A stretch of DNA of 25,944 bases from a virus. This document shows, in pieces, positions 1 to 22,312 of this stretch. The notes under the pieces are model-generated. The model was not told the origin of the DNA and searched no databases. It saw only the letters and a list, made by a program, of their open reading frames with translations. Each line of letters opens with the position of its first letter. The stretch's first letter is position 1. Location: the IMG/VR virus record IMGVR_UViG_3300025276_000195, positions 1-25,944 of that record. One strand, 5' to 3'. Position numbers and translations under genes: made by a program.

Positions 1-2044
1 TTAAATCTTCATTTAACCTAACCTTTACCTTTTCATTATTAGTTTCATCAATAATTGATAATATGTCTTTAGAAATGCCTAAATCGTCCGGAAATTCAAT
101 AGAAACTATATTACAAAATTCAGATTCAATAGGATTTGCTGGATATCCAGCTTCTGAAAGTGATTTTATTTTTATTTCTACCGTTTCATTGGGTCTAATA
201 GCAATATCTAGTTGATTTATGTTAACTTGTTCTCCGTTTTCAGTATCTTGTTCTTTCCAATAATACCTACCAGTATCTATATCAAAATATCTTTCTCTTA
301 AAGGTGATTTCATTGATACCCAATTAGAATAAACTCCTTTTTGTGTATTTCCATCTGAATCTGTAAAGTCAAATTCTTGCAAATTGTTTGCAGCACCTCC
401 TTTTGTAAGATATCTATATTCAATCTTGAATTGAATTACGCTTTGTTCAGAACCATCTGTTGCAATTTTATTAGTAGGTAAAGGCCAAAACCCTCTAACT
501 CTATATTTTGCATTGGCACTTGAAGTTGTTTTATCTTCTGCCTTTGTTAGAATATCAGAAACTACCGAATTATAAAGTGATTCAGTTGCAGCTCTTTTTT
601 CTATCAATGTTGATAGTTGATTGGCATCAGAATCTCTTTCGATATCTGATTTATAATTCTTAGTAGAAATTCCTTGTCTTTTAGTAGAAATTGCTTTATC
701 TAAATCTCCTAATTCACTTTTTAATGATAATTTTTCTTTATTAAGTGATTTAATGTCTTCGTTAGATTGTCCATCCGTTGCGTGTTTGTTTATTTGAACA
801 ACTTTAAAGTCGTTCGATACAACTTGTGGAACATTAGGAACTACTGCTTTTGAAACCGGTGGTATATTCTCTTGTGTCATAGAAAATAAAACAGCACCGA
901 AATCTACTACTTTTTCTTGATAGTACGTATCTAAAGTTTTAATTGCACTATCGGTATCTTTTATTGTTAATTCATTAGAATAGAAACTAATTCCAGGGGA
1001 ATAGTTATCAGCCGGTCTATTTGAATCTGGATTTATAGGTTTTAAAAATACAGAAAGATATTCATTGAATCCAATACCAACCCTAATTTCTGGTGATATT
1101 GCTTCAACAGGATAAAAAGATAAATTATCAGCTCCTATATTAACTGAATCATAACCTTCTGCCAAAATAACAGAAACCGTAAATGTTTCAAAATCAATTC
1201 CAGTAATTTTATATCTTGTACTTTTATCATTTTTATTAACCAATAAAGAATCGCCAACTTTTATTTGTTGCGTTTCTAAGATACTAGAATTTTTATCGTT
1301 ATATGTTAATTTGTCTAATTGAAACTTTTGAGATTTTTTTGATGCAGTTACTCCATCAACTAATACATTTTCTGTTGATTCAAAAACTCTGAGTACAGAA
1401 AAATTACCATAAAATCTAGGTTCTACTGGTGGTAAATCTAATATATCGTCATCAATTGTATATAAAATAGCATTTGTATTTATGATGTCTAAAAAGTTTG
1501 CATAAGATAAATCTGGATTATTCTTGATTTGCAAATTGAAAATATTCAATTTTGCATCACTGTCCAAGTTTAAAATAAACTTTTGCATTTTAACCTTAGT
1601 CGTATCCGGATTTAGTTGTGCCGGAAAATTCAATCCAACATACAATAGAGGATTCAAGAAAGATTCAAAGAACCAATTACTTTTAGATTTAAACCCAGTA
1701 GGTGTTTGAACTGTTGTAATATCATCGGCACTTTTCTTTAGTGTAGATTTTACAATAGTTCTAAAAGTACCATCCGGTAACTGAACACTAGCATCTTTAT
1801 TATTCAATGCTGATATTTGAGTTATATTTTCATCTAGTCTTTCGATATCTTTTTTCAAAGCACCGAAACTTGGAATAGTTACTGTTTTGATATTGTCATT
1901 TGCAATATCTTCTAAAGTTAATGTTACTACATCTGCATCACTATTAACAACCGCTGAAAGTTTTGTTAAAATTTCGGTGTTGTTTCTTTGTAGTTTTATA
2001 AGATTGTCCACAATTGAACTTAAACTATTCTTTACGTCTGACAT
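1..2044 (-). CDS. Large phage baseplate/structural protein, C-terminus cut by window edge
   Basis: The frame opens at ATG 2044-2042 (MSDVKNSL...) and stays open for 681 codons to the left edge without a stop, so the C-terminus lies outside the window. The N-terminal ~100 residues look helical. Residues ~415-500 are charged and coiled-coil-like. Residues ~500-650 are beta-rich and resemble a fibronectin III-like domain, with segments such as YRVRGFWPLP and VEIKIKSLSEAGYP. Length and position at the end of a baseplate cluster suggest a peripheral baseplate or fibre-attachment protein. This is inference from architecture; I do not recognise a named family. An ATTAAATA promoter-like octamer at 2069-2076 supports this start, and there is no Shine-Dalgarno. 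The preceding gene ends at 2078, so the motif lies in the gap. Confidence 0.8.
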   Translation of the reverse strand, partial: MSDVKNSLSSIVDNLIKLQRNNTEILTKLSAVVNSDADVVTLTLEDIANDNIKTVTIPSFGALKKDIERLDENITQISALNNKDASVQLPDGTFRTIVKSTLKKSADDITTVQTPTGFKSKSNWFFESFLNPLLYVGLNFPAQLNPDTTKVKMQKFILNLDSDAKLNIFNLQIKNNPDLSYANFLDIINTNAILYTIDDDILDLPPVEPRFYGNFSVLRVFESTENVLVDGVTASKKSQKFQLDKLTYNDKNSSILETQQIKVGDSLLVNKNDKSTRYKITGIDFETFTVSVILAEGYDSVNIGADNLSFYPVEAISPEIRVGIGFNEYLSVFLKPINPDSNRPADNYSPGISFYSNELTIKDTDSAIKTLDTYYQEKVVDFGAVLFSMTQENIPPVSKAVVPNVPQVVSNDFKVVQINKHATDGQSNEDIKSLNKEKLSLKSELGDLDKAISTKRQGISTKNYKSDIERDSDANQLSTLIEKRAATESLYNSVVSDILTKAEDKTTSSANAKYRVRGFWPLPTNKIATDGSEQSVIQFKIEYRYLTKGGAANNLQEFDFTDSDGNTQKGVYSNWVSMKSPLRERYFDIDTGRYYWKEQDTENGEQVNINQLDIAIRPNETVEIKIKSLSEAGYPANPIESEFCNIVSIEFPDDLGISKDILSIIDETNNEKVKVRLNEDL

Positions 2045-2068
2045 ATCGGTTATTGTATTTTCTTTATG

Positions 2069-2076
2069 TATTTAAT
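2069..2076 (-). promoter_or_regulatory. Late-promoter-like octamer ATTAAATA
   Basis: On the minus strand the octamer ATTAAATA is followed by CATAAAG and lies 24 nt upstream of the ATG at 2044. It resembles the T4 late promoter core TATAAATA. The same octamer and similar spacing recur before other genes here. Confidence 0.5.
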
Positions 2077-2077
2077 A

Positions 2078-4171
2078 TTATCTTAAAATGTCAATTGTAA
2101 ATGAATACGTATTGGCATTTGTACAAATTATTTCAATTATAGGTTTTGTTCCTGATAACTCAACATTGTTTAATTTAGTGATTAGCCATTTGTATGCACC
2201 TAATTGTCTTTTATTTTTACTATCGGTATATATGTAAAGATTTTTGGCATCTGCTAGTGAAAATCCTTTATCAAAAACAATTCTAAAAACTTGTCCCGTT
2301 TTAAACTTTTCAACTGTATCATCTATGTTTATAATAACATCGTTGTTTATATTCAAACTTTCAGTCGAATCATTTTTAAAGTAATTCGTAAATTGACCTA
2401 AATTAATTATATTGTTATTAGCAGGGTTCGTTACTACGTTTGGAACCGTTCCATTATTGGCAGCATAATTCAAATTGTTTGAAACGTTATAACATACAGG
2501 AAAAAAATTATATTTTTGAACTACATTACTAAGTATTACTTTACCGGGGACAGATTTGTCTAATTTCAAACCAGCTCCTTGTACGAAAGGACTTAAATTG
2601 TAAGACAAATTGCTCGTTAATTCTCCAGCTGCAAGTTTGTTTAGTCTTGTACTATTATTTCTAATTAATTCTATTATAGTAGTAGGACTTTCTAAGGCGA
2701 TCAATGCATTTTGTACAGAAGTTTGTAATGTACTAATTTTTGCATTCAATTCATCAATAGTTGCTTGATTGAAATAAAACTTTTCTAAGTTATCTACTTT
2801 AGTATTTAAACCTAGTATTGAAAGTTCTTGTGTAACAAAATTTTCTGTTGCATCCTGTAATTGAACCATTGCATCTGAAAACAAATCCATTGAAAATGTT
2901 GAGTACTCATTTATACTTCTTTCCACCCCTACATTATCAGCACTTGTATCAAATTTTATATTTGTTTTTAATGAATATGCATTACCATTTAATTTAGTTA
3001 TTGCATTAGGTTTAAATTTAGAAAATGCTTTTAAATCTGAACCAGCACTTATAGTTTGTTTAAAGTCATCAATAAATAAAACACCATAAAGATTTCTTTT
3101 TACCAACGAACCGTCTGATACGTTGAATATATCATAGTAAAGTAATACGGTATTGAAAGAAAAGTTTTCAGCTTCTGCTGTTGCATTCAATTCTGAAATA
3201 GAACTTACACTTGTATTATTAGTTACTTTAGTATATTTTGAACTATCCCAATCAATGATTGCACCATCCATATTGGATAATTTAACATCGAATTTATTCG
3301 TAAAACCTAAATCAGTTGCAACTTTTATAGTAGTATTTGCTGTTGCACCAAATGTATTTTCTGTTGTATAATAATTTTGACCGGAAGTATCATTAGCATA
3401 ATATGCTTTGATTGACATTCTCGGGTCTGCGGCTGCAGTTCTACCTTCAATATCTTCTCCTGTTCCTCTCCATAATATGCCAGTGTTGTAATTAGTATCG
3501 GAAAGAGTATTGAACAAAACAGTAGGTGTATTTCCGTGTTCTGATGGCATATGTAAGTAAACTTGTGTATAAGCTTCTCCTCCTCTATTGACATTGTTAA
3601 TTAAATCAATATCACCTAAATATTTTACTACCCTGTTGTAGGTATCTTTACTTGAATCGGCAGTATTTTGTCCTTCTTCTACAAACATATTGGCAACATT
3701 CGAATCTACATTCAAAGTTGCATCATCAAATCTTATTGCACCTAAATCGGCCAACCATTTCCAAAATATTCTTTCTGTTACTGTTTGATTAGTACTTGTA
3801 TCGTATAAATTACCGATAGAATTTTGTTTATTAAGAACTATGTTTTCCCAGTTCAAAACGTAATTTTGAAAACTATTGGCTATATATGTATTTTGTTGTT
3901 GGTTTGCACCGAGTAAATCCGTAATAACAGAATTGCTACTCCAAGTTGTTGGTGTTCCGGTATTTGCTCTGTTTCCTAATGCTTGCCAAACTATATTATT
4001 AGAATTACTGCTTGGTTGATTAACCTCAGGTAAATCTAAAGCTGCAAATTTACTAAATGTAAATCTAACATTATCATCACTAAAAGTTTTTGCAATATCA
4101 TTTGCTGCACTGTTAAAAACATAAATTGTTCCACCTTGCGTGCGTAAAGGTCTTAATAGTGGTGTAGCCAT
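2078..4171 (-). CDS. Phage virion structural protein, 697 aa
   Basis: A 697-residue protein beginning MATPLLRPLRTQGGTIYVF. It is rich in Asn, Thr and Ser like many virion appendage proteins. I see no signal peptide and no catalytic motif. The first ~420 residues look mostly beta. Residues ~419-495 form a helical, coiled-coil-like stretch (DNLEKFY...IDELNAKIS), and the last ~200 residues are again beta-rich. This beta-coil-beta layout suits a trimeric baseplate-periphery protein, in the way T4 gp10/gp11 are, but no sequence relationship to them can be claimed. The gene follows a strong terminator (4209-4236) and has its own ATTAAATA promoter-like box at 4194-4201, so it probably starts a transcription unit with the next large structural gene. 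Confidence 0.8.
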   Translation of the reverse strand: MATPLLRPLRTQGGTIYVFNSAANDIAKTFSDDNVRFTFSKFAALDLPEVNQPSSNSNNIVWQALGNRANTGTPTTWSSNSVITDLLGANQQQNTYIANSFQNYVLNWENIVLNKQNSIGNLYDTSTNQTVTERIFWKWLADLGAIRFDDATLNVDSNVANMFVEEGQNTADSSKDTYNRVVKYLGDIDLINNVNRGGEAYTQVYLHMPSEHGNTPTVLFNTLSDTNYNTGILWRGTGEDIEGRTAAADPRMSIKAYYANDTSGQNYYTTENTFGATANTTIKVATDLGFTNKFDVKLSNMDGAIIDWDSSKYTKVTNNTSVSSISELNATAEAENFSFNTVLLYYDIFNVSDGSLVKRNLYGVLFIDDFKQTISAGSDLKAFSKFKPNAITKLNGNAYSLKTNIKFDTSADNVGVERSINEYSTFSMDLFSDAMVQLQDATENFVTQELSILGLNTKVDNLEKFYFNQATIDELNAKISTLQTSVQNALIALESPTTIIELIRNNSTRLNKLAAGELTSNLSYNLSPFVQGAGLKLDKSVPGKVILSNVVQKYNFFPVCYNVSNNLNYAANNGTVPNVVTNPANNNIINLGQFTNYFKNDSTESLNINNDVIINIDDTVEKFKTGQVFRIVFDKGFSLADAKNLYIYTDSKNKRQLGAYKWLITKLNNVELSGTKPIIEIICTNANTYSFTIDILR

Positions 4172-4193
4172 ATTATTTTATATTAGTTTTATT

Positions 4194-4201
4194 TATTTAA
4201 T
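4194..4201 (-). promoter_or_regulatory. Late-promoter-like octamer ATTAAATA
   Basis: ATTAAATA followed by AATAAAAC on the minus strand, 22 nt upstream of the ATG at 4171 and 7 nt past the terminator stem at 4209-4236. Placement directly after a terminator supports a promoter role. Confidence 0.55.
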
Positions 4202-4208
4202 CAAACAA

Positions 4209-4236
4209 AAAAACCTACTAATTGTAGTAGGTTTTT
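4209..4236 (-). terminator. Rho-independent terminator, 12-bp perfect stem
   Basis: AAAAACCTACTA (4209-4220), a 4-nt loop (4221-4224) and the exact complement TAGTAGGTTTTT (4225-4236). Read on the minus strand the hairpin ends in a run of seven U before G. It lies 71 nt past the stop of the 176-aa gene (4308) and just before the promoter-like box of the 697-aa gene, so it separates two units. The T-run on the plus strand makes it potentially bidirectional. Confidence 0.85.
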
Positions 4237-4253
4237 AAATTTAAAATTAGTTG

Positions 4254-4279: not shown

Positions 4280-4307
4280 GTGTCATTAATGTAAAAAATA
4301 GCTTTAC

Positions 4308-4838
4308 TTAAATGCTATTAAGATATTTGATTGAATCTTTTAATCCTTTTATTCTTACATCTAAGTAATCATCTTCTTCTCCACCTGGAGCTGATTGTTT
4401 CCAATCCATATATACATCTACTATATCTTCAAATGCCATAATTGCTTTACCTAATTCAGTTCCTTTTATTGCTTTCATTGCTTTAGGAGATAATTTTTCT
4501 GAATACTGTCTACCAGTATCATCATAAAATGGATTTGTTATATCAACACCAGTGTTTCTATCAGCTCGAAATTCACCGTTTGATAAACTTTCATCAATAG
4601 ATTCTTCTTTTATATAGAATGTTTTTCCACTATGTAAATCAGCTATGTAATTTTTTAATTTATTATAAGTCCATTTTTTCTCCGTTTGCTTATTAGTAGG
4701 TGAATTATTATAAGACCTTTCATCTTTATTAAAATACTTTACCAGAATAGCGATAGCTTCTTCTCTATTCGTAGGTCTTTCCTTTTCAGGGTTATATGCA
4801 CTTTCGTTAATTTGTTCGAATTCGCTTAATCCTTTCAT
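4308..4838 (-). CDS. Possible capsid-targeted internal protein (T4 CTS-like N-terminus)
   Basis: A 176-residue, charged, mostly helical protein of no recognised family. Its N-terminus MKGLSEFEQINESA resembles the capsid-targeting sequence of T4 internal head proteins, which begin MKTYQEFI.EA and are cut by the prohead protease gp21 after (L/I)-x-E. Here I10-N11-E12 would be such a site, leaving a mature protein that starts at Ser13. The remainder contains a Lys/Asn/Tyr-rich part (residues ~30-75) and an acidic C-terminal half. Unlike its neighbours it looks soluble rather than fibrous. It is a single-gene unit: a promoter-like ATTAAATA lies at 4858-4865, and a hairpin plus terminator follow. 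Packaging into the head is inference from the N-terminal motif only. Confidence 0.75.
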   Translation of the reverse strand: MKGLSEFEQINESAYNPEKERPTNREEAIAILVKYFNKDERSYNNSPTNKQTEKKWTYNKLKNYIADLHSGKTFYIKEESIDESLSNGEFRADRNTGVDITNPFYDDTGRQYSEKLSPKAMKAIKGTELGKAIMAFEDIVDVYMDWKQSAPGGEEDDYLDVRIKGLKDSIKYLNSI

Positions 4839-4857
4839 TTTTATTTTTTATTTTATG

Positions 4858-4865
4858 TATTTAAT
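4858..4865 (-). promoter_or_regulatory. Late-promoter-like octamer ATTAAATA
   Basis: ATTAAATACATAAA on the minus strand, 19 nt upstream of the ATG at 4838. The same 14 bases occur before the start at 2044. It lies in a 127-bp gap (4839-4965), one of the two longest in the window. Confidence 0.5.
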
Positions 4866-4948: not shown

Positions 4949-4965
4949 ATCATTCTAAATAGTTA

Positions 4966-9210: not shown

Positions 9211-11019
9211 TTATTTTCTCGGTATAGATTCTCTAATTACAATATTTAGTGCTGATAAATTAGCATCATTTATTCCATCAGAATAAATAATTCCATTCCT
9301 GTCAGTAAATCCACCTCTAATAATCGGCAATTCTTTGTTTCCTATTGTAATATCACCGAATTCATCTAATCCCAAGTTAGGATTTTCTCCTACTTTAAGT
9401 TTAATTTTTTCGTTGGTTTCTATCGAATTGCTTAAATTTAAGTTAGGTACATCGTTATTTTCTCTAACTGCTTTTAATAAAGCACTAGATGTCTCTGTAT
9501 TGTTATAATTAATTTTTTTGAAATAATATCCGTTAAAAATAGCTTCTTCGTTAGTTTTAGAAATAAAATCAACATAAACGGAATCTACGCCATCAATTTC
9601 TTCTATCATCTTAATAATATCTGAACGAGGTATTTTATCTCTTCTTTGTAAAGATAAGAAATATTCTCCTATTACATTTGTTATTTCGGCTTTTACTGTG
9701 TCTTCGCTAATAATGTCATCAAAAACTCTAATAAAAACATTCAATGCATAATTTGTAACAACCGGGTCTATTATTTCTAATTCAGTTGAAATTAATTGTC
9801 TACCACTTTTGTTGATTACATCATAAACAGCATCTTTATCTTCTTTTGAAAGATAGAAGTTGCTAATGTCTGTACTAAAGTAATCGGAATTGCTTTGTAC
9901 TTTCCTTGTAATGTCTGGTAATAAGAAAAGATATACTATGTTGTCATCATCTAAATATTCATCACCAAAAGTATTGAATGCTTCTATAAAACTAAATTGA
10001 TTGTATTTAGATAAGAATGCTATATAATTTGTAGGATTTGCAAGTACTAATCCTCTACTGTTTTTGTTAAGTAAAAATCTAGTAAGTTCTTTATCTTCTG
10101 CATCAGCACCCATTGTTATTTTCTTAGATACGCTAATATCGAAAATTTCATTCAAATCCAACTCGCCACCAAATCCATCAGAAACCTCATCGACAAATTC
10201 AAGCAAAATAGAAGATGATGATTCCCCAATATTACCACCCGAACCATTTGAAGCAATCCACTCCACTTGGATTTTTTCTCCAGAATCTGGTATGTAACCA
10301 TAATCTTTATTGCCAAAATATATATCAACCCCACCATTAATTCCTGTTTTTATTATGACCCCTTTTTCGTTCTTTTTAATATCATAAAGAGATTCAAAAT
10401 TTTTAAATTCTTGACCATTTACTAAAACAGTAATTATATCATTTTCTATTTGTGCAAATCTGGTTGGAATATTGAAAGATTGTAAGTCAGTATTATCTCC
10501 GATAAAATCAGAAGTGTTCAATTCTCCTTCAACAACTTGAAACTTAAATAATTTCGAACTGGTTTTAGGAATATAAACAGACTCAGAATCTAAAATTATT
10601 AGATAATTTTTTTGATTGTTTTTACACAATACTTTACTGTAATTTTGAATTTGTATATTAGCACCCGGTATTTCATTTGCCATTCCAGGTTTTATCTTTA
10701 ACGATAATTCGCCTTTTGCACTAATCGGTCTACTGGGATTGTGACCCGTTAATCTTGATAATCCTAATATAGAATTTTCTTTAAAAGCGGTTAAAAGATT
10801 TCTTTCATTTAAAGAATCCTCTAAATAAAAGTATTGTAATTTGTTTAATTCGTTAAGTACGTCAACAATTTGGCCATATGGACTTGAAGGGGAAAAGTTT
10901 AATCCTCTTTTTTCATATTCTTTGATTAAGTATAGTTCTATTTGTTCTTTTAATTGACCATCGAACAGTCTACTTTTGTCTATAATCTTATTAACTTGGG
11001 CCTTTGCTTTCTTTGACAT
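9211..11019 (-). CDS. Baseplate wedge protein, gp6 / baseplate J family
   Basis: A 602-residue protein directly after the gp25-like gene, the usual order of T4 25-6, P2 W-J and injection systems. The N-terminus is helical (IKEYEKRGLNF...DVLNELNKLQYFYLEDSLNERN), matching the oligomerising part of J-like proteins. The middle contains the typical string of small beta domains with Gly-rich turns (GGVDIYFGNKDYG near residues 228-240, NGSGGNIGESSSS near 258-270), then the helical segment KELTRFLLNKNSRGL. A C-terminal half contains TNVIGEYFLSLQRRDKIPRSDI, the classic 'launch into next repeat' region of J. It forms wedges around the hub and signals sheath contraction. A promoter-like GTTAAATA lies 20 nt upstream. 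Confidence 0.9.
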   Translation of the reverse strand: MSKKAKAQVNKIIDKSRLFDGQLKEQIELYLIKEYEKRGLNFSPSSPYGQIVDVLNELNKLQYFYLEDSLNERNLLTAFKENSILGLSRLTGHNPSRPISAKGELSLKIKPGMANEIPGANIQIQNYSKVLCKNNQKNYLIILDSESVYIPKTSSKLFKFQVVEGELNTSDFIGDNTDLQSFNIPTRFAQIENDIITVLVNGQEFKNFESLYDIKKNEKGVIIKTGINGGVDIYFGNKDYGYIPDSGEKIQVEWIASNGSGGNIGESSSSILLEFVDEVSDGFGGELDLNEIFDISVSKKITMGADAEDKELTRFLLNKNSRGLVLANPTNYIAFLSKYNQFSFIEAFNTFGDEYLDDDNIVYLFLLPDITRKVQSNSDYFSTDISNFYLSKEDKDAVYDVINKSGRQLISTELEIIDPVVTNYALNVFIRVFDDIISEDTVKAEITNVIGEYFLSLQRRDKIPRSDIIKMIEEIDGVDSVYVDFISKTNEEAIFNGYYFKKINYNNTETSSALLKAVRENNDVPNLNLSNSIETNEKIKLKVGENPNLGLDEFGDITIGNKELPIIRGGFTDRNGIIYSDGINDANLSALNIVIRESIPRK

Positions 11020-11039
11020 CTACGAACAATTGTTTTTTA

Positions 11040-11047
11040 TATTTAAC
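11040..11047 (-). promoter_or_regulatory. Late-promoter-like octamer GTTAAATA
   Basis: GTTAAATATAAAAAAC on the minus strand, 20 nt upstream of the ATG at 11019. It overlaps the stop codon of the gp25-like gene (11043-11045). Confidence 0.4.
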
Positions 11048-12213: not shown

Positions 12214-13524
12214 TTAATCTTCCTTTTCGTCCAGGTTTTCAACATCTTTGTCAATTACGATAGTACTTTCTGTAATTTCAGTATTTGAATGCGAACCTTT
12301 TCTAAAAATACCACCATCTACGTAAGAATCTATTATTTCAACACCATCTAAATAACAATTTTTAAATTCGGCATATCTATTTTCTCCATTTTTTATTCTA
12401 CTGTCTTTGAATTTAGAATTGTTAGTTTCGCATCTATCTAAATCTGAACCCGATATTACACAATCGTGTACTGGTGTTTGAATCATAACAACATTTAGTA
12501 ATCTACAATTATAAAAAAGAATTCTAGGATTTTCTATTAATGTCTTTCTAAATATAAATCCAGCAAATTCAATACAAGAATTGTCAGTATCGTAATTTAT
12601 TATTCCTTTCATATTAAACTTTACTTCTTTCATTCTAATAAGAATAGGAAACAAATCTTTCCACATAAGAGGAAAAAATAATTTTAATGTTTCTACATCA
12701 TCTCTAGTGTCTACTTTGAATTCTATATTTTTGAATATATTATTGAAATTAAAATAGTTTTGACCAGCCAAAAAGATATCTTTCTTTGGTTCTAATAATT
12801 TAATTAGTTTTTCTTTTATTTCACTATCGTCTTTTTCGTAAGATTCTTTGATGCTCATTAAAAAATAATCTAAAAGATATAAGATATCAGATTGTTGTTC
12901 TTCGTATTTTCTACCACCTAAATATCTAAATTCTAAATAATTACTTTTTAATTTTTCAAAATTAACACCATAATACTTACTGGTAGGATAAACAAAACTA
13001 GTTCTATTAGTACTTATTGTTTTGAAATCAAAGTTACTATGTAACGGAATTATTTCTTTTATTGATTTTGTATATATATTGTCTCTTCTTTTAGGAAATC
13101 TACTATAAACTTCTTCTTCATCAAAGTTTAAAATAAATTTAAGAATATCAATTTGTTGTATATAATCAGCATCAGGAAAATTCAAATTCAAATGTATTCC
13201 ACACCTTTCGGTAGTTTTTACTTCTGGCGTTTCTCTAATCCATCTCAAGACTTTTATTAAAACTATTTTTGCATGATTATAATCAAGTGGTCCTGTTACT
13301 AATTCAACAGAATGGTCTCCTAAAGAAAAGTCCGGTTCTATTTTATAGTGATTGTCGGTAGGAATAAACGCTGAATGGTGTTCCTTTTCTATATTAATTT
13401 TTGCCTTTAAAAGTTTTGAAAATTGTTTCTTAATTTCTCCTAAGTTAAAGGTAGGTTTTCTTACAAATTCAATTTCTAAACCAACTTTACTATTGTGTAA
13501 TTCCATATCTTTTTCTTGGTTCAT
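12214..13524 (-). CDS. Amidoligase-like enzyme fused to pentapeptide-like repeats
   Basis: The N-terminal ~205 residues carry the signatures of the COOH-NH2 ligase (amidoligase, glutamine-synthetase/GCS fold) family: GLEIEF at 15-20, KIEPDFSL at 61-68, VELVTGPL at 73-80, ERCGIHLNLN at 106-115 and NYLEFRYLGG at 195-204. Acidic residues E17, E19, E74 and E198, with H111 and R200, would form the ATP/metal site. After a helical middle, residues ~335-420 contain imperfect five-residue repeats (SDLDR, SKFKD, SRIKN, AEFKN, CYLDG), predicting a right-handed beta-helix. The family forms amide or peptide bonds, often modifying proteins or making small peptides; the substrate here is unknown. It has its own promoter-like box behind a terminator. 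MELHNS at codon 7 is an alternative start. Confidence 0.88.
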   Translation of the reverse strand: MNQEKDMELHNSKVGLEIEFVRKPTFNLGEIKKQFSKLLKAKINIEKEHHSAFIPTDNHYKIEPDFSLGDHSVELVTGPLDYNHAKIVLIKVLRWIRETPEVKTTERCGIHLNLNFPDADYIQQIDILKFILNFDEEEVYSRFPKRRDNIYTKSIKEIIPLHSNFDFKTISTNRTSFVYPTSKYYGVNFEKLKSNYLEFRYLGGRKYEEQQSDILYLLDYFLMSIKESYEKDDSEIKEKLIKLLEPKKDIFLAGQNYFNFNNIFKNIEFKVDTRDDVETLKLFFPLMWKDLFPILIRMKEVKFNMKGIINYDTDNSCIEFAGFIFRKTLIENPRILFYNCRLLNVVMIQTPVHDCVISGSDLDRCETNNSKFKDSRIKNGENRYAEFKNCYLDGVEIIDSYVDGGIFRKGSHSNTEITESTIVIDKDVENLDEKED

Positions 13525-13542
13525 AAAATGCGTTAGTTTTCT

Positions 13543-13550
13543 TATTTAAT
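13543..13550 (-). promoter_or_regulatory. Late-promoter-like octamer ATTAAATA
   Basis: GATTAAATAAGAAAACTAA on the minus strand, 18 nt upstream of the ATG at 13524 and 4 nt after the terminator stem at 13555-13582. The box before 4171 has the same terminator-then-ATTAAATA arrangement. Confidence 0.55.
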
Positions 13551-13554: not shown

Positions 13555-13582
13555 AAAAGGCAATCAGAAATGATTGCCTTTT
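13555..13582 (-). terminator. Rho-independent terminator, 12-bp perfect stem
   Basis: AAAAGGCAATCA (13555-13566), loop GAAA (13567-13570) and TGATTGCCTTTT (13571-13582) form a perfect stem. On the minus strand the loop is UUUC and the 3' side ends in a run of seven U. It lies 25 nt past the stop of the S1 gene (13608) and upstream of the amidoligase promoter-like box. Confidence 0.88.
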
Positions 13583-13607: not shown

Positions 13608-14726
13608 TTAAGTTAATTCTAAAACGTATTTGTTATCTTTATTATCAAGTATTTTTACGTTGTGTCTATCTCCTTTTTTTAATTCTACACCATCTTTTAG
13701 TTTACTTACGTGAAGCAATCCGGTTGCGTTTCTACCTAAAGAAATAAAACTACCATATTTTACGGTCTTAACAACTCTACCTTCAACAACATCTCCTTTT
13801 TCAAATTTAGGTTTTGCAACTTCATTTGGATCAACTACTAGTCTAGATAAAATTATTTTTCTGCTAGTAACAACTTCCTTTAAATAGAAATCAATTTCTT
13901 TTCCAGGAACAACATCACCTTTTTCAAAATAATCAAGTAAAACCTCATCATAATCATCTTTGTGAATCATTCCGGTTAATACGTTGTTAAATTCTATAAA
14001 TATACCAAACGGTTTAGTTCCTGTTATAGTTCCTGTATAAACAGCACCTATTTCTAATTTTTCAATTTCTGTTGGTATTAAAGTTTCTAAATATGCTCTA
14101 TGTGAAACAATTAATTGGTCTTTGAATTTAGAATATGCATTTTCATTTTTAATTGGCATAACTTTTATTGTTTTACCTATTAATGTTTGAAAATCTAATA
14201 ATTTGTTTATTCCTCCTAAACTACCTGGCATAAATACTTGAACACCTTCTATACTAAGAACGTATCCATTTTCTGTTAGACTTAAAACCTCTGCATCATA
14301 TACTATTTCTTCTTCTGAATATTTCATTTCGTTGTAAAGATTCGATTTTACGAATTCTACAATACTAGCTTTTAGATATTCTTTAGTATCAATGATAGAA
14401 GCTTCAACTTCTTCTCCGATTTTATATGATTCTGGGTTTAATTTATCTTTTTCTAATGAAATATAGGCAAAGTCTTTTGAACCAATGTCTAATAATATGT
14501 CAGTGTTAGATATTTGCGAAACTTTACCTACAATAGTTTGTCCAATTTCGTATTTAAGATTTTTAGGTAGTTTGTTAAAGGAATCATCATATTGCTTTAA
14601 CATTTCATCGGCATATGATTCGGTTGAAAGTAGTTTACCGTTTTCTAAGAATGTTGGTTTTTTTGATGTTTCTTCAAATACAGAAATATTTGATGGGTCA
14701 CCATAGGTTACTGTTTGCTCATTCAT
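13608..14726 (-). CDS. S1-domain protein, ribosomal protein S1-like, four OB repeats
   Basis: 372 residues with four S1 RNA-binding repeats at ~60-125, 141-212, 225-296 and 309-372. The third (TGTKPFGIFIEFNNVLTGMIHKDD) and fourth (KYGSFISLGRNATGLLHVSKL) keep the G-x-F and G-L-x-H core of strong RNA-binding S1 repeats. The first and second are divergent, as in the ribosome-docking repeats of bacterial S1. Bacterial S1 usually has six repeats, so this is a shortened form. The N-terminal ~55 residues are unrelated and polar. Known S1 proteins unfold and deliver mRNA leaders to the 30S subunit. A phage copy could favour the short SD-less A/T-rich leaders seen here, or act in RNA replication or decay; this is inference. 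It has an upstream ATTAAATA and a downstream terminator. Confidence 0.93.
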   Translation of the reverse strand: MNEQTVTYGDPSNISVFEETSKKPTFLENGKLLSTESYADEMLKQYDDSFNKLPKNLKYEIGQTIVGKVSQISNTDILLDIGSKDFAYISLEKDKLNPESYKIGEEVEASIIDTKEYLKASIVEFVKSNLYNEMKYSEEEIVYDAEVLSLTENGYVLSIEGVQVFMPGSLGGINKLLDFQTLIGKTIKVMPIKNENAYSKFKDQLIVSHRAYLETLIPTEIEKLEIGAVYTGTITGTKPFGIFIEFNNVLTGMIHKDDYDEVLLDYFEKGDVVPGKEIDFYLKEVVTSRKIILSRLVVDPNEVAKPKFEKGDVVEGRVVKTVKYGSFISLGRNATGLLHVSKLKDGVELKKGDRHNVKILDNKDNKYVLELT

Positions 14727-14752
14727 TTTTTATTTGTTTTAAAGTTATACGT

Positions 14753-14760
14753 TATTTAAT
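14753..14760 (-). promoter_or_regulatory. Late-promoter-like octamer ATTAAATA
   Basis: ATTAAATAACGTATAAC on the minus strand, 26 nt upstream of the ATG at 14726, in a 42-bp gap. It would drive the S1 gene separately from the spike genes. Confidence 0.45.
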
Positions 14761-14768: not shown

Positions 14769-15038
14769 TTATGATAATGTTCCTGCACCCGCACCTACTC
14801 CAGCACCTACTCCAGCACCTACTTGTGCAATTGCTGTTCCAGCCGTTGTAACAGCGGTGGTTACTGCTGTACTTACAGTAGTAGTTACTGTTGCACTTCT
14901 GATATATAAATCTATTGCAAGTGCCAATTCTTCAGCAACCTTTTCAATAGCTTCTCTTGCTTCATCGTTTAATCCATCTTCTTTTGCACCTAATATTTTC
15001 TTTAAGTCTTCTTGAAATGTCGGTAATACTAATGCCAT
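14769..15038 (-). CDS. Small baseplate/spike-associated protein, Ala/Thr/Val-rich tail
   Basis: 89 residues in three parts. Residues 7-46 are helical (FQEDLKKIL, EAREAIEKVAEELA, ending AIDLYIRSAT). Residues 48-72 are almost only Thr, Val, Ala and Ser. Residues 73-87 are a Gly-Ala-Val repeat. Short proteins with a helical start, a 'YI(K/R)SATV' junction and a low-complexity T/V/G tail are often found beside spike genes in phage baseplate modules; their function is unknown to me. The gene follows the spike gene by 29 nt. It could plug or extend the spike, or act as an assembly factor. A plus-strand frame over the same bases is an artefact of the low-complexity sequence. Confidence 0.7.
   Translation of the reverse strand: MALVLPTFQEDLKKILGAKEDGLNDEAREAIEKVAEELALAIDLYIRSATVTTTVSTAVTTAVTTAGTAIAQVGAGVGAGVGAGAGTLS
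14791..14826. repeat. 12-bp tandem repeat (GCACCTACTCCA, about three units)
   Basis: Units at 14791-14802 and 14803-14814 are identical, and the third (14815-14826) differs in the last three bases. On the minus strand each unit encodes four residues of the GAGV tail of the 89-aa protein. Slipped-strand expansion or contraction would change tail length without breaking the frame. Confidence 0.85.
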
Positions 15039-15064
15039 AATTATGTTGGTTTAAGTTTATAATA

Positions 15065-15072
15065 TATTTACT
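15065..15072 (-). promoter_or_regulatory. Late-promoter-like octamer AGTAAATA
   Basis: AGTAAATATATTATAAAC on the minus strand, 26 nt upstream of the ATG at 15038. It overlaps the stop of the spike gene. The same AGTAAATAT occurs before the 90-aa gene. Confidence 0.35.
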
Positions 15073-15880
15073 CATTTGGTAATGATGGTCCATCTAAAGT
15101 TACTTTTGAACTTCTTGTAGCTGGTATTTCGTTCTTTTCTATTTCGTTAAGTGCTTTTGTAATTGGTGGGGTTGCAGTACTTAATTCAAGATATGCTGGC
15201 GCTAATCCTGCAGTAAAAGGAACACCAGCAGCAATTGGTTGATTTATTGTAGCAAATTTATTTACTGCATCATTTAATGTTTTTAATTGTTTTGATAGGG
15301 CTTCTAATGCTATTACATTTTTGTCTCCTAGTACAGCTGGTTCTTCAGATATACCTTCTGAACCTAAACTAATTCCGTCATCGTTAATATGTATAACATC
15401 TTCTGTTTTGCCGTTTTTGATAAAAATACTTTCGTCTTCATTTTTGAATTGAATAAACGAAGCATTTTTTCTAATAATCAATCCTTGTGTTTCTGTGTAG
15501 AATATTTCAAGTGTTCTTTCATCAGATACTTCTCCTGTCGCATCCTCTCCAGCTTTTTTGTCATAAACTATTGACCAAACTTTTGGATAGTCTTCTGCAT
15601 ATTCTCCTAAAAGGTCATCATTTGTTTTAGATATTCCCATAAAAAAAGGAATATTTTCATCTCCGTTTTCGAAAAAAACATTACAAATTTCTCCTACTTT
15701 TGGTATATAAACTGTTCCTGATGAAAGTTGATTATAAGGGATTGCCCACGGAATAACATCTGCTTCAAGTTCATCGTATTTACCGAATACTTTTATTTTA
15801 ACTCTTCCAAGTTGTAAAGGGTCTCCTGTATTTATGACTTCTCCAACCCATATAGTTCCTAATGTAATATCTTTAAACAT
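15068..15880 (-). CDS. Tail spike/needle protein, gp5 OB-fold (gpV/VgrG-tip) type
   Basis: Residues ~5-85 show the OB-fold of gp5/gpV spikes: WVGEVINTGDPLQLGRVKIKV, then IPWAIP, VGEICNVFFENGD and PFFMG, the usual 'flow of the barrel' motifs. Residues ~130-175 are beta-rich (IFYTETQGLIIRKNASF, IKNGKTEDVIHI). The rest has the helical segment VIALEALSKQLKTLNDAV and ends SSKVTLDGPSLPNE. T4 gp5 has a lysozyme domain between its OB-fold and its beta-helix; none is present here and no long octapeptide beta-helix is obvious. It would sit under the hub as the membrane-piercing trimer. It follows the 450-aa gene by 2 nt and precedes the 89-aa gene. Confidence 0.9.
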   Translation of the reverse strand: MFKDITLGTIWVGEVINTGDPLQLGRVKIKVFGKYDELEADVIPWAIPYNQLSSGTVYIPKVGEICNVFFENGDENIPFFMGISKTNDDLLGEYAEDYPKVWSIVYDKKAGEDATGEVSDERTLEIFYTETQGLIIRKNASFIQFKNEDESIFIKNGKTEDVIHINDDGISLGSEGISEEPAVLGDKNVIALEALSKQLKTLNDAVNKFATINQPIAAGVPFTAGLAPAYLELSTATPPITKALNEIEKNEIPATRSSKVTLDGPSLPNE

Positions 15881-17237: not shown

Positions 17238-18713
17238 CTAATTTTTATTTTTTGCAACACCAGCGCTATAAGGTATAGGCCATTCTCTTCTTATCAAATT
17301 AACTGTTTGTGTAAAACCATTAGATTTTTCCCAATTAATAGAAAAATCACGAACAACATAAAATCCACTGATAAAACTATTTGCAATAAAGTTTTCAGGT
17401 CTATCATATGTATCACTACCTTGTTCTGGTTGCGTATCTCTTTCAGCATCACCATATTTCATTCCAGCATTTGCTATTAATCCAGCATCTCTTTCGTATA
17501 TGGCAACTGGAATTCTTTTATACCTTGATATAGAACTAGATATATCTTGTAAAGTTATACTTAGTCCCATTTTATTTAATTCCTCATTGTTTTGATAATT
17601 CAAAATTTTAGCATAATGATAATTTGGATGTAAATTTCCTTCGTTTAAAGTACTAAATTGCCTACCTTGATATAAAAATTTATTTTGTAATTTATATGAT
17701 TCATCTCCTGCTTTACCTTTTAAAATAACTAAGTCTTTTTCAGAACCTTCTGTTGTTAAAGGGTCAACAAAGAAAGATTGAAATTCATAGGTATCCATAT
17801 CCATATATTGACTGTACCTTTTATATCCATTTGTCATCCATATTTGACCGGAATTGTTGAAAAGACTATAGCTTTTTATATAGTTAGATGTATTACTAAA
17901 ATTATCATGATTAGATAAAATAATTTTAGCATCATCTCCCTTAACACCTTCGTTTTGTGAATCTTTATCTTCGGTCACTGATGATACTATATCGGCAATT
18001 CCATCTTCTAAAGTTTCATCCATAGAAAAAAGAGTATTTACATTTACTAGTGTAAGATAATAATACAAGTCGATATAAGAAGTAAAAAAACTATTTTCAT
18101 CTTTATATGAATAGTCAACCGTTTTCTTTATGAAATCTTTTATAGTATTGTTCGGATTAAAACGAGGCATTTTATCGTTTGTAATTGTTTCATTAGACGC
18201 AAAACCTAATTCTGTTTCATCACAAACAGACAATAAATGATTATACGAAGTATCTTCTAAAAAAGATAGTTGTTTTTCGCTGAATAGGTTAGGCACTTTC
18301 ATTATACCCGTTAAACTATAAATATTTTTATTTTTTGATGGTTGTCCTTTTATAGAAAGAATATCAAAATTTATTCTTATTTTCTTTTTTGCATCATTGT
18401 TTCTACTTCTAATATACAATTCTATCAAATCACCATCTTTAGGAAAATCGTTTTGAAATTGTTTAGAAACGTCATTGAATGCTAAATCTATTGTAGGTAC
18501 AAAATCTTTAGAATGTATTTTAAATTTGATAATGGTATTAGAATCCATTTCATATCCATTAATCTTTATATGAGGAGTACTGTTCCCCATATATTTTTCT
18601 TTATTTGCGGTTGTTTGTCTTTCGTCTTCAAAGTTACCTACTTCTATTTGTTCTAAAACAACAGCAGGTTCTTTGATAGTCAATATGTCTGAGTTCTTGC
18701 TTCCTGTTATCAT
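17238..18713 (-). CDS. Baseplate hub protein, gp27 / late control gene D (gpD) type
   Basis: 491 residues. The N-terminal ~60-130 forms a gp27/gpD-like beta domain (FKIHSKDFVPTIDLAFND, then DGDLIELYIRSRNN and INFDILSIKG). This is followed by the helical 'hub' middle (FIKKTVDYSY, DLYYYLTLVN) and a long insertion with Asp/Ser-rich loops. The C-terminus has FISGFYVVRDFSINWEKSNGF and LIRREWPIPYSAG, the closing segment of this hub family. The hub is a trimer that joins the tail tube to the spike. It shares a TAATG overlap with the LysM gene upstream and is 2 nt from the 450-aa gene, indicating translational coupling. Confidence 0.87.
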   Translation of the reverse strand: MITGSKNSDILTIKEPAVVLEQIEVGNFEDERQTTANKEKYMGNSTPHIKINGYEMDSNTIIKFKIHSKDFVPTIDLAFNDVSKQFQNDFPKDGDLIELYIRSRNNDAKKKIRINFDILSIKGQPSKNKNIYSLTGIMKVPNLFSEKQLSFLEDTSYNHLLSVCDETELGFASNETITNDKMPRFNPNNTIKDFIKKTVDYSYKDENSFFTSYIDLYYYLTLVNVNTLFSMDETLEDGIADIVSSVTEDKDSQNEGVKGDDAKIILSNHDNFSNTSNYIKSYSLFNNSGQIWMTNGYKRYSQYMDMDTYEFQSFFVDPLTTEGSEKDLVILKGKAGDESYKLQNKFLYQGRQFSTLNEGNLHPNYHYAKILNYQNNEELNKMGLSITLQDISSSISRYKRIPVAIYERDAGLIANAGMKYGDAERDTQPEQGSDTYDRPENFIANSFISGFYVVRDFSINWEKSNGFTQTVNLIRREWPIPYSAGVAKNKN

Positions 18714-19216
18714 TATACACTAATACTGTTAGTTTCTTTATTTATATCAATATTAGTTTCTCCTGGTTTAAGCTCATTAGGTTTTACGTTTACTTTTGAA
18801 CCATTTTTAACACTACTACTAATTTTTGCAAGGGTTTCTAAACGTTTAGTGTCTACTTTACTTTTCTTAGTAGAATCAATATATTTTTGTTTAGATTCTT
18901 TAGATTCTTTATTTGGATTTTTATAAAAATTCTTAGCATCATCTAGTTCAGGAATAAGAATAACATCACCAGTTCTTACACTTAGTGGGTCTGATATTTC
19001 GTTACATTTTAAAATTATATCAACATAGTCATCAGAATTGTATACTGCTAAGGATATTAAATCAACTCTACGGTCATATTCTTCCGAAACCTTTATCAAT
19101 TTCCTTACAAGAAAATGTACACTATTATATTCTGGAACAAACGTAGGTTCTGCAAAATCAACTATATTAGTTATTTTGTCTTTACTTATTTGTATTTTAC
19201 TTTTTAAATTTTCCAT
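18713..19216 (-). CDS. LysM-domain baseplate protein, gp53-like
   Basis: 167 residues. Residues ~46-92 are a LysM-like fold: EEYDRRVDLISLAVYNSDDY, then DIILKCNEI, then the characteristic VRTGDVILIPE ending. LysM-containing proteins of this size lie next to the hub/spike genes in T4 (gp53), injection systems (Afp7/Pvc7-like) and many myoviruses. There the domain is structural, clamping the wedges to the hub and tube, rather than acting in cell-wall lysis. The C-terminal third is Lys/Ser-rich and ends with NELKPGETNID. It overlaps both neighbours by one base (TAATG), so it is translated in a coupled series with the 521-aa and hub genes. Confidence 0.88.
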   Translation of the reverse strand: MENLKSKIQISKDKITNIVDFAEPTFVPEYNSVHFLVRKLIKVSEEYDRRVDLISLAVYNSDDYVDIILKCNEISDPLSVRTGDVILIPELDDAKNFYKNPNKESKESKQKYIDSTKKSKVDTKRLETLAKISSSVKNGSKVNVKPNELKPGETNIDINKETNSISV

Positions 19217-20781
19217 TATGCTATTGTTTTACCGACATTAGGGCTTTGAAATCTGCCACTTTTTGCTAAAGAAACTGCACCACTTTCGGCCTGTTTTGTT
19301 GTTTTAAGTACGCTATAATCACCTTTATTTCCAGAACTATTTCCACCCCTATTTCTATAATAAGATTTGTTTTCGAAATCGGCATTACTACCATAAAATC
19401 TACTACCTCCAAAATTAAACATTCTTTCTATTCCGTATTTATCTCTAGGCATTGCATGTTTTAATTTAACTTCTAAATTTACATAACTAGGAACATCGTC
19501 TGCTGTAAATGGTCCTTCCATACTGAAAGATGCATCTTCCATAATTAAGTTACCATACATCATAGCTGGATTGAAAGGATTTCCGATTGTTAAATGCCAT
19601 TCTCCTGTTGGATTTGCTGTTAGTAATGAATGTAAGGAAAACATTTCGGGTCTACCTAATTTATCCATACCACCACCTAACATAGATGAGGCTGCATTTC
19701 CAGCAATAGTTTTTAAACCTTTCATTAGTCCACCTTCGAAAGGTTTAGATAATTTATCGGTGATATCTCCCATAAAAGATTTCAAGAAACCACTAATGTC
19801 TCCGTTTTTTAGCATTTTAGAATCTCCCATTGGTCCTGAATGTGCACCACCACCAGTAAATCTAACAGCACCTCCCCAAAAGGGTGCTTTATTTGTAACC
19901 ATATTTAACATATTACCTATAATATCTAAAAATGCAACTTTTGTAGTTATGCCATCATAAGAACGAACAGCATATCTAAATTTTAGTGTTACATCTTGCG
20001 TAAAGTTTATACCTTTATCTCTAGTCATTACTTTATCAATAACATCTATTGGCCCAAAGGTATAATTTGCAGCATGTGATGAATATGGGTCAAAATCGGT
20101 TTTGGCTTGTCCTTGTAATTTTTCTTTTGCAAACTTACCAGAAGTATCCGCATATCCTAAAAAATCTAATTTACCGAATCCAGTTTTTGATTTATCCAGT
20201 GTTTGAATTTCACTTTGAAATTCTTTCCAATTAAAACCAGCACTGAAAGAAAAAACACTATCAAATGCATTTGATTCACCATCTATATATGTTAATAGTC
20301 TAGCAACATCTCTATTTGGATTTTGTAAATTATTAAGTAAGTTATCGTTACTTGGTTGTGGAAATCTTCTAAGGGTAATCAAGTGGTTATTAGGAACTTT
20401 TCCGTAATCATCTACAAATAAAAAGTCTCCCCATTTATATTGCATAGCGTGATTTACTTGAGTTTCGTCAAATGCTGAAACAATGTTAGAACCGGATGGA
20501 TTTCTATATCCTTTAGCGGTTTTTCCATTAAAATATCTACTTTCTTTAAGATTAAAAGAATCTGCTGATAGGTTTGCTCCTTGTTCAAACATATCATTAT
20601 AATGAATAACAGAAAGAGAGTGCAACATAGATTGCCTACCTTCTAATGCTGGAAAGTTTTTGTCGGTCTTTTTACCTTTTTCGTCATACTTAGGACCTTC
20701 AGGTAGATTGATAGCATCTCCTTTAATTGAACGTTCTATATAATTTTTAGAATTGTTATTTGGATTTTCGCTAAAACTCAT
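19216..20781 (-). CDS. Virion protein, probable tail-tube cap/baseplate hub component, 521 aa
   Basis: A conserved-looking phage structural protein. Recognisable segments are QYKWGDFLFVDDYGKVPNNH and LITLRRFPQPSNDNL (residues ~112-146), a Gly-rich middle (VRFTGGGAHSGPMGD; LMKGLKTIAGNAASSMLGGG), and HLTIGNPFNPAMMYGNL followed by GPFTADDVPSYVNLEVKLKHA and the IERMFNFGGSRFYGS end. This last part resembles sequences annotated as tube or baseplate structural proteins in large myoviruses. It begins the unit of the LysM, hub and spike genes, which suits a tube-initiator or cap role (T4 gp48/gp54-type). That assignment is by position. It has its own ATTAAATA 19 nt upstream. Confidence 0.82.
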   Translation of the reverse strand: MSFSENPNNNSKNYIERSIKGDAINLPEGPKYDEKGKKTDKNFPALEGRQSMLHSLSVIHYNDMFEQGANLSADSFNLKESRYFNGKTAKGYRNPSGSNIVSAFDETQVNHAMQYKWGDFLFVDDYGKVPNNHLITLRRFPQPSNDNLLNNLQNPNRDVARLLTYIDGESNAFDSVFSFSAGFNWKEFQSEIQTLDKSKTGFGKLDFLGYADTSGKFAKEKLQGQAKTDFDPYSSHAANYTFGPIDVIDKVMTRDKGINFTQDVTLKFRYAVRSYDGITTKVAFLDIIGNMLNMVTNKAPFWGGAVRFTGGGAHSGPMGDSKMLKNGDISGFLKSFMGDITDKLSKPFEGGLMKGLKTIAGNAASSMLGGGMDKLGRPEMFSLHSLLTANPTGEWHLTIGNPFNPAMMYGNLIMEDASFSMEGPFTADDVPSYVNLEVKLKHAMPRDKYGIERMFNFGGSRFYGSNADFENKSYYRNRGGNSSGNKGDYSVLKTTKQAESGAVSLAKSGRFQSPNVGKTIA

Positions 20782-20800
20782 AAAGACCTAAGATTTATAT

Positions 20801-20808
20801 TATTTAAT
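20801..20808 (-). promoter_or_regulatory. Late-promoter-like octamer ATTAAATA
   Basis: GATTAAATAATATAAATC on the minus strand, 19 nt upstream of the ATG at 20781, inside the 43-bp gap after the 274-aa gene. It would open the hub/spike unit. Confidence 0.5.
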
Positions 20809-20824
20809 CTTTCCGTAAATTAGG

Positions 20825-21649: not shown

Positions 21650-22011
21650 TCTGTATTTATTTCGGTAGGTTCATCTAAGTCGCATATTTGAATTTCCATT
21701 ACAACTTGTAACTTTTTTCTATAACTTTCGATAGTTCCGATAAAGTTTTCAAGAATAACAGAATCTAAAGTATCTGTATAATAAAATATAGTATGATACT
21801 TTAGATTGTGTAGGTTTGCAATTGAATCGTATAATTTATTGAATAGTTCACAACTCAAAACAGAATTATTTTTACTTTCACCGAATAATAAGTATTTTTC
21901 TTGTTGATTTAATATATCAACATAAGATACAGTAATGCTACCCGGTTTCTTTTTGATAAAATCCTTGAATCCTGTGTGTTCTTTTGTATGAATTATAAAA
22001 AAATTATTCAT
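21577..22011 (-). CDS. Unrecognised 144-aa protein; possible tail-assembly chaperone
   Basis: A 144-residue alpha/beta protein (MNNFFIIHTKEHTGF start). Alternating strands and helices such as HTIFYYTDTLDSVIL and KKLQVVMEIQICDL suggest a small globular fold, but no nucleotide-binding or catalytic motif is convincing. It starts in a TAATG overlap with the 90-aa gene. Codons 129-131 (ATA AAA AAT) carry a slippery-type heptamer, and its last 14 codons are shared out of frame with the 274-aa gene. Size and the -1 overlap resemble the G/GT tail-assembly chaperones of phages, but no tape-measure gene follows here, so this is only a hypothesis. Confidence 0.78.
   Translation of the reverse strand: MNNFFIIHTKEHTGFKDFIKKKPGSITVSYVDILNQQEKYLLFGESKNNSVLSCELFNKLYDSIANLHNLKYHTIFYYTDTLDSVILENFIGTIESYRKKLQVVMEIQICDLDEPTEINTECLNQITTIKNINQVNKEYILQIF
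21619..21625 (-). promoter_or_regulatory. Candidate -1 frameshift slippery heptamer A_AAA_AAT
   Basis: In the reading frame of the 144-aa gene the codons read ATA AAA AAT. This places A_AAA_AAT in the X_XXY_YYZ register of -1 slippery sites. After slippage the next codon is TAT, in frame with residue 11 of the 274-aa protein. A weak hairpin (GAATAT at 21600-21595 pairing with ATATTC at 21585-21580) lies 18 nt downstream, further than typical stimulators. Confidence 0.35.
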
Positions 22012-22283
22012 TATAAATCGTCTGGTGTAAAGTCTTCTTCTGCTAATTCAGCATCAATATCTATTTCATTTTCAACATCTACTGAATGTGTTTTTTGACT
22101 AGAAAAACTAGAAATGCCATTATTTTCTTTTAGTTGCTGTTGTAGATTTTCGTGTTGTTCTTTTCCTAATTCAGCCATTTGCTTTTTGATTTCTTGAAAT
22201 TCCGCATTAGTCATCAATCCTTTTTTGACTTGTTTCTTTGCATTCTTTACAAATGATTTTCTTTGTTCTCTAGTGATTTGCAT
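22011..22283 (-). CDS. Small charged helical protein, 90 aa
   Basis: 90 residues with a strongly basic helical N-terminal half (REQRKSFVKNAKKQVKKG), a Gln/Glu-rich coiled-coil-like middle (QHENLQQQLKEN) and an acidic tail (EIDIDAELAEEDFTPDDL). I do not recognise a family. It is coupled to the 144-aa gene by TAATG overlap. The basic-to-acidic layout is compatible with an assembly chaperone or scaffold-like peptide. An AGTAAATA box lies 21 nt upstream. Confidence 0.75.
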   Translation of the reverse strand: MQITREQRKSFVKNAKKQVKKGLMTNAEFQEIKKQMAELGKEQHENLQQQLKENNGISSFSSQKTHSVDVENEIDIDAELAEEDFTPDDL

Positions 22284-22304
22284 ACTTTAAATTTTAATAT
22301 ATGA

Positions 22305-22312
22305 TATTTACT
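22305..22312 (-). promoter_or_regulatory. Late-promoter-like octamer AGTAAATA
   Basis: AGTAAATATCATATATTAAAA on the minus strand, 21 nt upstream of the ATG at 22283. It shares AGTAAATAT with the box before the 89-aa gene. Confidence 0.35.

What the first reader, a model, noticed from the sequence alone, without database searches (positions are those of the whole stretch)
1..22312. Recurrent late-promoter-like octamer set precisely upstream of independent gene starts
On the minus strand, ATTAAATA, AGTAAATA, GTTAAATA or TATAAATA lies 18-26 nt upstream of ten ATGs: 2044, 4171, 4838, 5487, 11019, 13524, 14726, 15038, 20781 and 22283. Genes that overlap or nearly touch the gene before them (for example 9201, 15880, 17235, 18713, 19216, 22011, 23603, 24908, 25191) lack it at that spacing. 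T4 late promoters are an isolated TATAAATA read by the phage sigma gp55, giving short leaders. This looks like a related system with a shifted consensus, possibly with its own phage sigma factor.
Basis: partly seen in the sequence, partly recalled or inferred. Interest (0 to 1): 0.72.

Follow-up and report, generated by a model that had tools for sequence, protein, structure and literature searches.

The report
Late promoters of huge Bacteroidota phages
The repeated eight-letter DNA word is very probably a real late-gene switch of a family of very large viruses of Bacteroidota bacteria, related to the one in phage T4; in this branch both the word and the viral protein expected to read it have changed, and some messages appear to start exactly at the first letter of the gene.

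Summary
All ten octamers lie where stated. De novo motif discovery on a 203-gene composite of close relatives finds GATTAAATA (LLR 105, null at most 53), mostly 18-22 nt before the ATG. Orthologues keep eight of the ten; TATAAATA before 5487 is not kept and 15038 could not be tested.
It looks like a T4-type late promoter: one -10-like octamer, no -35 element, upstream of virion genes and uvsW, absent from replication genes. The fifth base after the octamer is A in 46 of 48 sites, the inferred start. Octamer, exactly four bases, then ATG recurs (12 times in the composite; in the window, gene 11423-12196), implying leaderless late mRNAs.
The 'shifted consensus' is real: relatives use GATATATA, AATATATA or TATACATA in the same register. 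All large relatives carry a gp55-like sigma. This clade's gp55 (ten contigs) has a 68-132-residue insert, predicted SH3-like, between residues that form the -10 pockets in T4 gp55; no GATATATA occurs before 301 isolated gene starts in eight insert-bearing records.
A new variant of a known kind. Sigma-octamer pairing, start sites and leaderless mRNA are inferred, not measured.

The parts
2069..2076 (-). late-promoter octamer ATTAAATA; predicted start A at 2064, 20-nt leader, gene 2-2044
   Evidence: kept in G001, G003, G005, L010, L015
4194..4201 (-). late-promoter octamer ATTAAATA; predicted start A at 4189, gene 2078-4171
   Evidence: kept in G001, G003, L010, L015, L017
4209..4236 (-). intrinsic-terminator-like hairpin plus T run just upstream of the 4194-4201 promoter
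4858..4865 (-). late-promoter octamer ATTAAATA; predicted start A at 4853, gene 4308-4838
   Evidence: kept in G001, L015
5507..5514 (-). TATAAATA before 5487: probably NOT a promoter
   Evidence: T at +5; TACGAATA in G001, L010, L015, absent in G004, G005
11040..11047 (-). late-promoter octamer GTTAAATA (ATTAAATA in relatives); predicted start A at 11035, gene 9211-11019 (gp6-like baseplate wedge)
   Evidence: kept in G001, G003, G004, G005, L010, L011, L015
12201..12208 (-). late-promoter octamer ATTAAATA, leaderless class: 4 nt then ATG; predicted start is the A of the ATG at 12196, gene 11423-12196 (head-tail adaptor-like)
   Evidence: octamer (AGTAAATA in G004), 4-nt spacing and T at -1 kept in seven relatives while other bases between change
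13543..13550 (-). late-promoter octamer ATTAAATA; predicted start A at 13538, gene 12214-13524 (amidoligase plus pentapeptide repeat)
   Evidence: kept in relatives
13555..13582 (-). intrinsic-terminator-like hairpin plus T run just upstream of the 13543-13550 promoter
14753..14760 (-). late-promoter octamer ATTAAATA; predicted start A at 14748, gene 13608-14726 (S1-domain protein)
   Evidence: kept in G001, G003, L010, L011, L015; ATTATATA in G004, G005
15065..15072 (-). octamer AGTAAATA; predicted start A at 15060, gene 14769-15038; no orthologue to test
20801..20808 (-). late-promoter octamer ATTAAATA; predicted start A at 20796, gene 19216-20781
   Evidence: kept in G001, G003, G004, G005, L015
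22305..22312 (-). late-promoter octamer AGTAAATA; predicted start A at 22300, gene 22011-22283
   Evidence: kept in G001, G003; similar octamers nearby in G004, G005

Best explanation
The octamers are the late promoters of a huge phage of Bacteroidota, of the T4 late type. A small phage-encoded gp55-type sigma factor (sigma region 2 only) directs host RNA polymerase to a lone octamer (consensus GATTAAATA) in the -10 region, with no -35 element. Transcription starts at an A five bases after the octamer, the same spacing as the Bacteroidota host -7 element. Most late mRNAs have leaders of about 13-22 nt; some start at the A of the ATG and are leaderless. Across this phage group the octamer has drifted (GATATATA, AATATATA, TATACATA, here ATTAAATA) while keeping the frame xxTAxATA. 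In the window's clade the change goes with an SH3-like domain inserted in gp55 between the residues that form the -10 base pockets. Shown by sequence: motif, positions, conservation, absence of -35, gp55 and its insert. Inferred: that this gp55 reads the octamer, the start sites, late timing, leaderless translation, host phylum, and any effect of the insert on recognition.
For: Motif: de novo LLR 105 vs null at most 53; cross-clade matrix of octamers. Position: peak at 18-22 nt plus a peak at exactly 4 nt, 12 octamers vs 0.23 expected; the 4-nt peak recurs with GATATATA (7) and TATACATA (4). Start site: A at +5 in 46/48 (P 1e-9) vs 60% after permuted octamers; the same reading recovers known geometry in controls, purine at +5 for host-type TAnnTTTG and at +6 for T4 (PMC6847099; PMC2988020). 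No -35: upstream information at sampling level, while host-type promoters show a -33 element. Gene classes: portal, protease, sheath, baseplate, head closure, gp15-like and uvsW carry it; polymerase, uvsX, 41, 44, 46, 47, 32-, 61-, nrdA- and td-like genes do not. Sigma: gp55 in all large relatives and in the window clade; pocket residues F86 and T99 kept. Terminators directly before two octamers.
Against: No transcript data. gp33 and gp45 homologues not found by HMM. The C-terminal clamp-binding peptide of T4 gp55 is not recognisable. The major head protein gene has no octamer at standard spacing. The window record itself lacks gp55; it is read from relatives. Some non-virion genes (PhoH-like, cytidyltransferase-like) also carry the octamer.
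Confidence: 0.86

Rival explanations
1. The octamer is a translation signal (A-rich Bacteroidota initiation region) rather than a promoter.
For: Bacteroidota lack Shine-Dalgarno sites and favour A at -3, -6, -12, -13 (PMC6847099); the motif lies near start codons.
Against: Two discrete spacings (4 and 18-22 nt) with a nearly empty gap between, and the A at +5 is tied to the octamer rather than to the ATG. Genes with no gap before them mostly lack it. Two octamers sit right after terminators. Clade-specific octamers are not expected of a ribosome signal.
Confidence: 0.05
2. Host primary-sigma promoters with an AT-rich -7 element, read without any phage sigma.
For: Same distance to the start as the host -7 element TAnnTTTG.
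Against: The sequence differs from TAnnTTTG; no -33 element, which host-type promoters in PTm1/pT24 do show; the octamer changes between phage clades; host-type TATATTT(A/G) sites exist separately in PTm1, pT24 and LR756500.
Confidence: 0.05
3. Chance AT-rich words in a 30% GC genome.
For: AT-rich sequence; octamer set picked after the fact; de novo search on the window alone fails.
Against: De novo discovery, positional peaks, strand bias and orthologue conservation in relatives.
Confidence: 0.01

Closest known systems
Bacteriophage T4 late promoters and gp55/gp33/gp45 (PMC2988020, PMC7892883)
   Same: Lone -10-like octamer, no -35, AT-rich downstream, short leaders, virion genes, gp55-type sigma encoded near gp46/gp47
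   Different: Octamer ATTAAATA (T4 TATAAATA); start at octamer end +5 (T4 +6); leaderless class not seen in T4; gp55 core about 120 aa without T4's C-terminal region, and here with a 68-132 aa insert; gp33 and gp45 not recognised
Late promoters of T4-related phages with altered consensus (e.g. Aeh1, a/gC at -13/-12; PMC2988020)
   Same: Consensus change at the first two octamer positions
   Different: Here the first two positions are AT, in a distant huge-phage clade, and the change accompanies an insertion in the sigma
Group 2 jumbo phages with sigma factors, including Lak and PTm1 (PMC7824862); moraphages (PMC12619734)
   Same: Phage-encoded sigma reported for relatives of this group, Bacteroidota hosts predicted
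   Different: The passages read give no promoter consensus, leaderless class or sigma insertion
Bacteroidota host promoter with -7 element TAnnTTTG (PMC6847099)
   Same: Element spans -12..-5 with about 4 nt to the start
   Different: Different octamer, no -33 element

Membership tests
T4-type (gp55-dependent) late promoter | lone 8-bp TATAAATA-like element at -10 | tested here: met
   de novo GATTAAATA; frame xxTAxATA shared with T4 and relatives; exact TATAAATA is not what this clade uses
T4-type (gp55-dependent) late promoter | no conserved -35 element | tested here: met
   upstream information at sampling level, positive control shows a -33 element
T4-type (gp55-dependent) late promoter | start site about one helical turn downstream, fixed | tested here: met
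   A at +5 in 46/48; T4 and host controls recovered; inferred from sequence only
T4-type (gp55-dependent) late promoter | drives virion genes, not replication genes | tested here: met
T4-type (gp55-dependent) late promoter | active late, dependent on gp55 | not testable with these tools
   no expression or in vitro data
T4-type (gp55-dependent) late promoter | phage encodes gp55-type sigma | tested here: met
   in close relatives, not in the window fragment
T4-type (gp55-dependent) late promoter | gp33 co-activator | tested here: inconclusive
   phrog_254 finds T4 only
T4-type (gp55-dependent) late promoter | gp45 sliding clamp and clamp-binding C-terminus of gp55 | tested here: inconclusive
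   phrog_223 no match, T4 not among the records searched; G006:45041-45829 looks clamp-like by eye but Pfam and PHROGs find nothing
gp55 sigma family | sigma region 2 with the pocket residues of T4 gp55 | tested here: met
   F86 and T99 kept; Y97 is F, H95 is F and N13 is K in the window clade
SH3-like barrel (Tudor/KOW) | small beta-barrel fold of the insert | tested here: inconclusive
   AlphaFold2 models of mean pLDDT 69 and 61; VIA Z up to 7.9 and 8.7, rmsd about 2, 55-60 residues

The most novel reading that the evidence does not exclude
A gp55-type sigma has taken an SH3-like domain into the turn between the residues that form its -10 base pockets (T4 F86 and H95/Y97/T99), and this insertion rewired late-promoter recognition from GATATATA to ATTAAATA across the whole late regulon; the same group also makes leaderless late mRNAs whose first base is the A of the start codon.
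Probability: 0.4. Interest if true: 0.78.

Novelty: new variant of a known kind. Interest (0 to 1): 0.62.

Why it matters
It extends gp55-type late transcription from T4 relatives to huge uncultured Bacteroidota phages and gives a readable map of their late regulons. It offers a natural series (TATAAATA, TATACATA, GATATATA, ATTAAATA) in which promoter and minimal sigma differ together, so the base-recognition rules of a one-domain sigma can be tested directly. A leaderless class in phages of bacteria without Shine-Dalgarno sites would be useful for studying initiation there.

Tried and rejected
De novo motif search on the window alone (13 starts) did not beat its null; nor did G004, G005 or G014 alone, and G001 barely did. 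DNA-level search of the window in GenBank phages found nothing. phrog_234 missed the window clade's gp55 because of its insertion; it was found by gene order and BLAST. G016, G017, G019 and G020 were first taken for the clade's missing replication region; they are a separate lineage with AATATATA. A search for a shared C-terminal peptide found gp55 itself, one neighbour in LR756500 and one unrelated-looking protein. Foldseek against PDB gave nothing at E 0.001 for the gp55 model; one BFVD protein of 248 aa (A0A8S5VU51) matched at 6.7e-6, not followed up. The insert profile found no other protein in the fetched loci. Literature searches found no description of these promoters, but the library is open-access only.

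Full report
What the window is. The 25,944-bp record is a virus fragment with all called genes on the minus strand: a baseplate and tail module with a gp6-like wedge (9211-11019), a gp5-like hub (15068-15880), a tail-linked small protein (18713-19216) and a head-tail adaptor-like gene (11423-12196). Protein relatives in GenBank are large to huge phages: LR756500 (43%), the Lak phages, PAU, PTm1 and pT24. Close relatives are IMG/VR contigs: G001, G003-G006 overlap the window at 74-90% DNA identity, and G027-G031 continue the same clade.

Observation. A composite of non-overlapping stretches of G001, G006, G027 and G004 has 203 genes, 117 of them with a gap before them. EM motif discovery, with no seed taken from the finding, gives G-A-T-T-A-A-A(c)-T-A with LLR 105 against 36-53 for order-2 Markov controls. 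GATTAAATA is strongly strand-biased (G001 10:0, G003 10:0, G006 9:0).

Corrections. Orthologue alignments keep the octamers before 2044, 4171, 4838, 11019, 13524, 14726, 20781 and 22283; 15038 has no orthologue among the relatives; 5487 is not kept. The gene starting at 12196 has the octamer at 4 nt, kept in seven relatives while the intervening bases change (AAAT, CTTT, CATT, TAGT).

Start site and leaderless class. Distances from octamer end to ATG are bimodal: 18-22 nt, and exactly 4 nt (12 octamers, 0.23 expected; none at 0-3 nt). The same 4-nt peak appears with GATATATA (7) and TATACATA (4), but not in T4. At leadered sites the fifth base after the octamer is A in 46 of 48 (57% elsewhere, P 1e-9; 60% after permuted octamers). 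In the 4-nt class that fifth base is the A of the ATG. The reading was checked on promoters of known geometry: host-type TAnnTTTG in PTm1/pT24 gives purine at +5 (85%), and T4 TATAAATA gives its purine peak at +6, in line with PMC6847099 and PMC2988020. I infer starts at octamer end +5 and leaderless mRNAs for the 4-nt class. This also fixes a common register for the clade octamers, xxTAxATA.

No -35. Information upstream of the octamer is near sampling level (mean 0.045 bits, bias 0.036) apart from the preceding G; host-type promoters in the same analysis show a -33 element (0.82 bits). Host-type TATATTT(A/G) sites exist separately in PTm1, pT24 and LR756500, presumably early promoters.

Gene classes. 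With the octamer at 13-31 nt: portal, prohead protease, sheath, baseplate and head-closure genes, and uvsW, which is a late gene in T4 (general knowledge, not looked up). Leaderless: a gp15-like sheath stabiliser, a terminase-like gene and the adaptor-like gene; a gene 4-like start has 5 nt. Without: DNA polymerase halves, uvsX, 41, 44, 46, 47, 32-, 61-, nrdA- and td-like genes. It is not confined to virion genes (PhoH-like, cytidyltransferase-like), and the major head protein gene lacks it.

Sigma. gp55 homologues occur once in every large relative, between gp46/gp47-like and head genes in those inspected. The window clade's gp55 was found at the end of G006 and then in nine more contigs. All ten carry an in-frame insert of 68-132 residues with conserved ends; most relatives without it are about 120 residues. 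In T4, gp55 pockets take A-12 (Y97), A-9 (N13, H95) and A-8 (T99), with F86 also needed (PMC7892883). The insert falls between the F86 and H95 positions; T99 and F86 are kept, Y97 is F (as in PAU), H95 is F (as in the other relatives), N13 is K. Two AlphaFold2 models of modest confidence give the insert as a small beta barrel most like Tudor/KOW folds (Z up to 7.9 and 8.7), a level that can reflect only a common arrangement. Insert-bearing records have ATTAAATA and no GATATATA before 301 isolated starts (some records overlap the same genome region); records without it use GATATATA, AATATATA, TATACATA or TATAAATA. This is one clade, so the association may be a single event and is not proof of cause.

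Limits. No expression data; gp33 and gp45 not detected; gene calls are my own simple caller; gp55 is read from relatives, though one gp55 contig (L347) and a contig 94% identical to the window in the gp6 protein (L015) come from the same metagenome.

Noticed in passing
window 13608-14726 (-): Encodes a protein with S1 RNA-binding domains (PF00575, E 4e-24), under a conserved late octamer; S1-domain proteins are known in a few huge phages (PMC7162821). May bear on translation of short-leader or leaderless late mRNAs.
   Followed up: partly
window 12214-13524 (-): Amidoligase_2 domain followed by a weak pentapeptide-repeat match, under a conserved late octamer right after a terminator.
   Followed up: no
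window 22891-22950, upstream of the 22890 start: TAATTAATATA is conserved before this start in four relatives down to 52% protein identity; it is not the late octamer and may be another signal.
   Followed up: no
window 22947-25191: Repeated pairs: a small acidic protein (23605-23889, 24910-25191) and a longer protein ending RRRIIIC (22947-23603, 23913-24908), looking like a tandemly duplicated two-gene unit.
   Followed up: no
G006:43501-47049: Family B DNA polymerase split into two genes with a third, clamp-like gene (45041-45829) between them; similar arrangement in G007, G008 and LR756500.
   Followed up: partly
LR756500:231551-233587: gp55 and its downstream neighbour (537 aa) end in the same peptide NAEIYSI, possibly a shared binding peptide.
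   Followed up: partly
BFVD entry A0A8S5VU51: A 248-aa Ackermannviridae protein matches the inserted gp55 model by fold (E 6.7e-6): a possible second inserted gp55.
   Followed up: no
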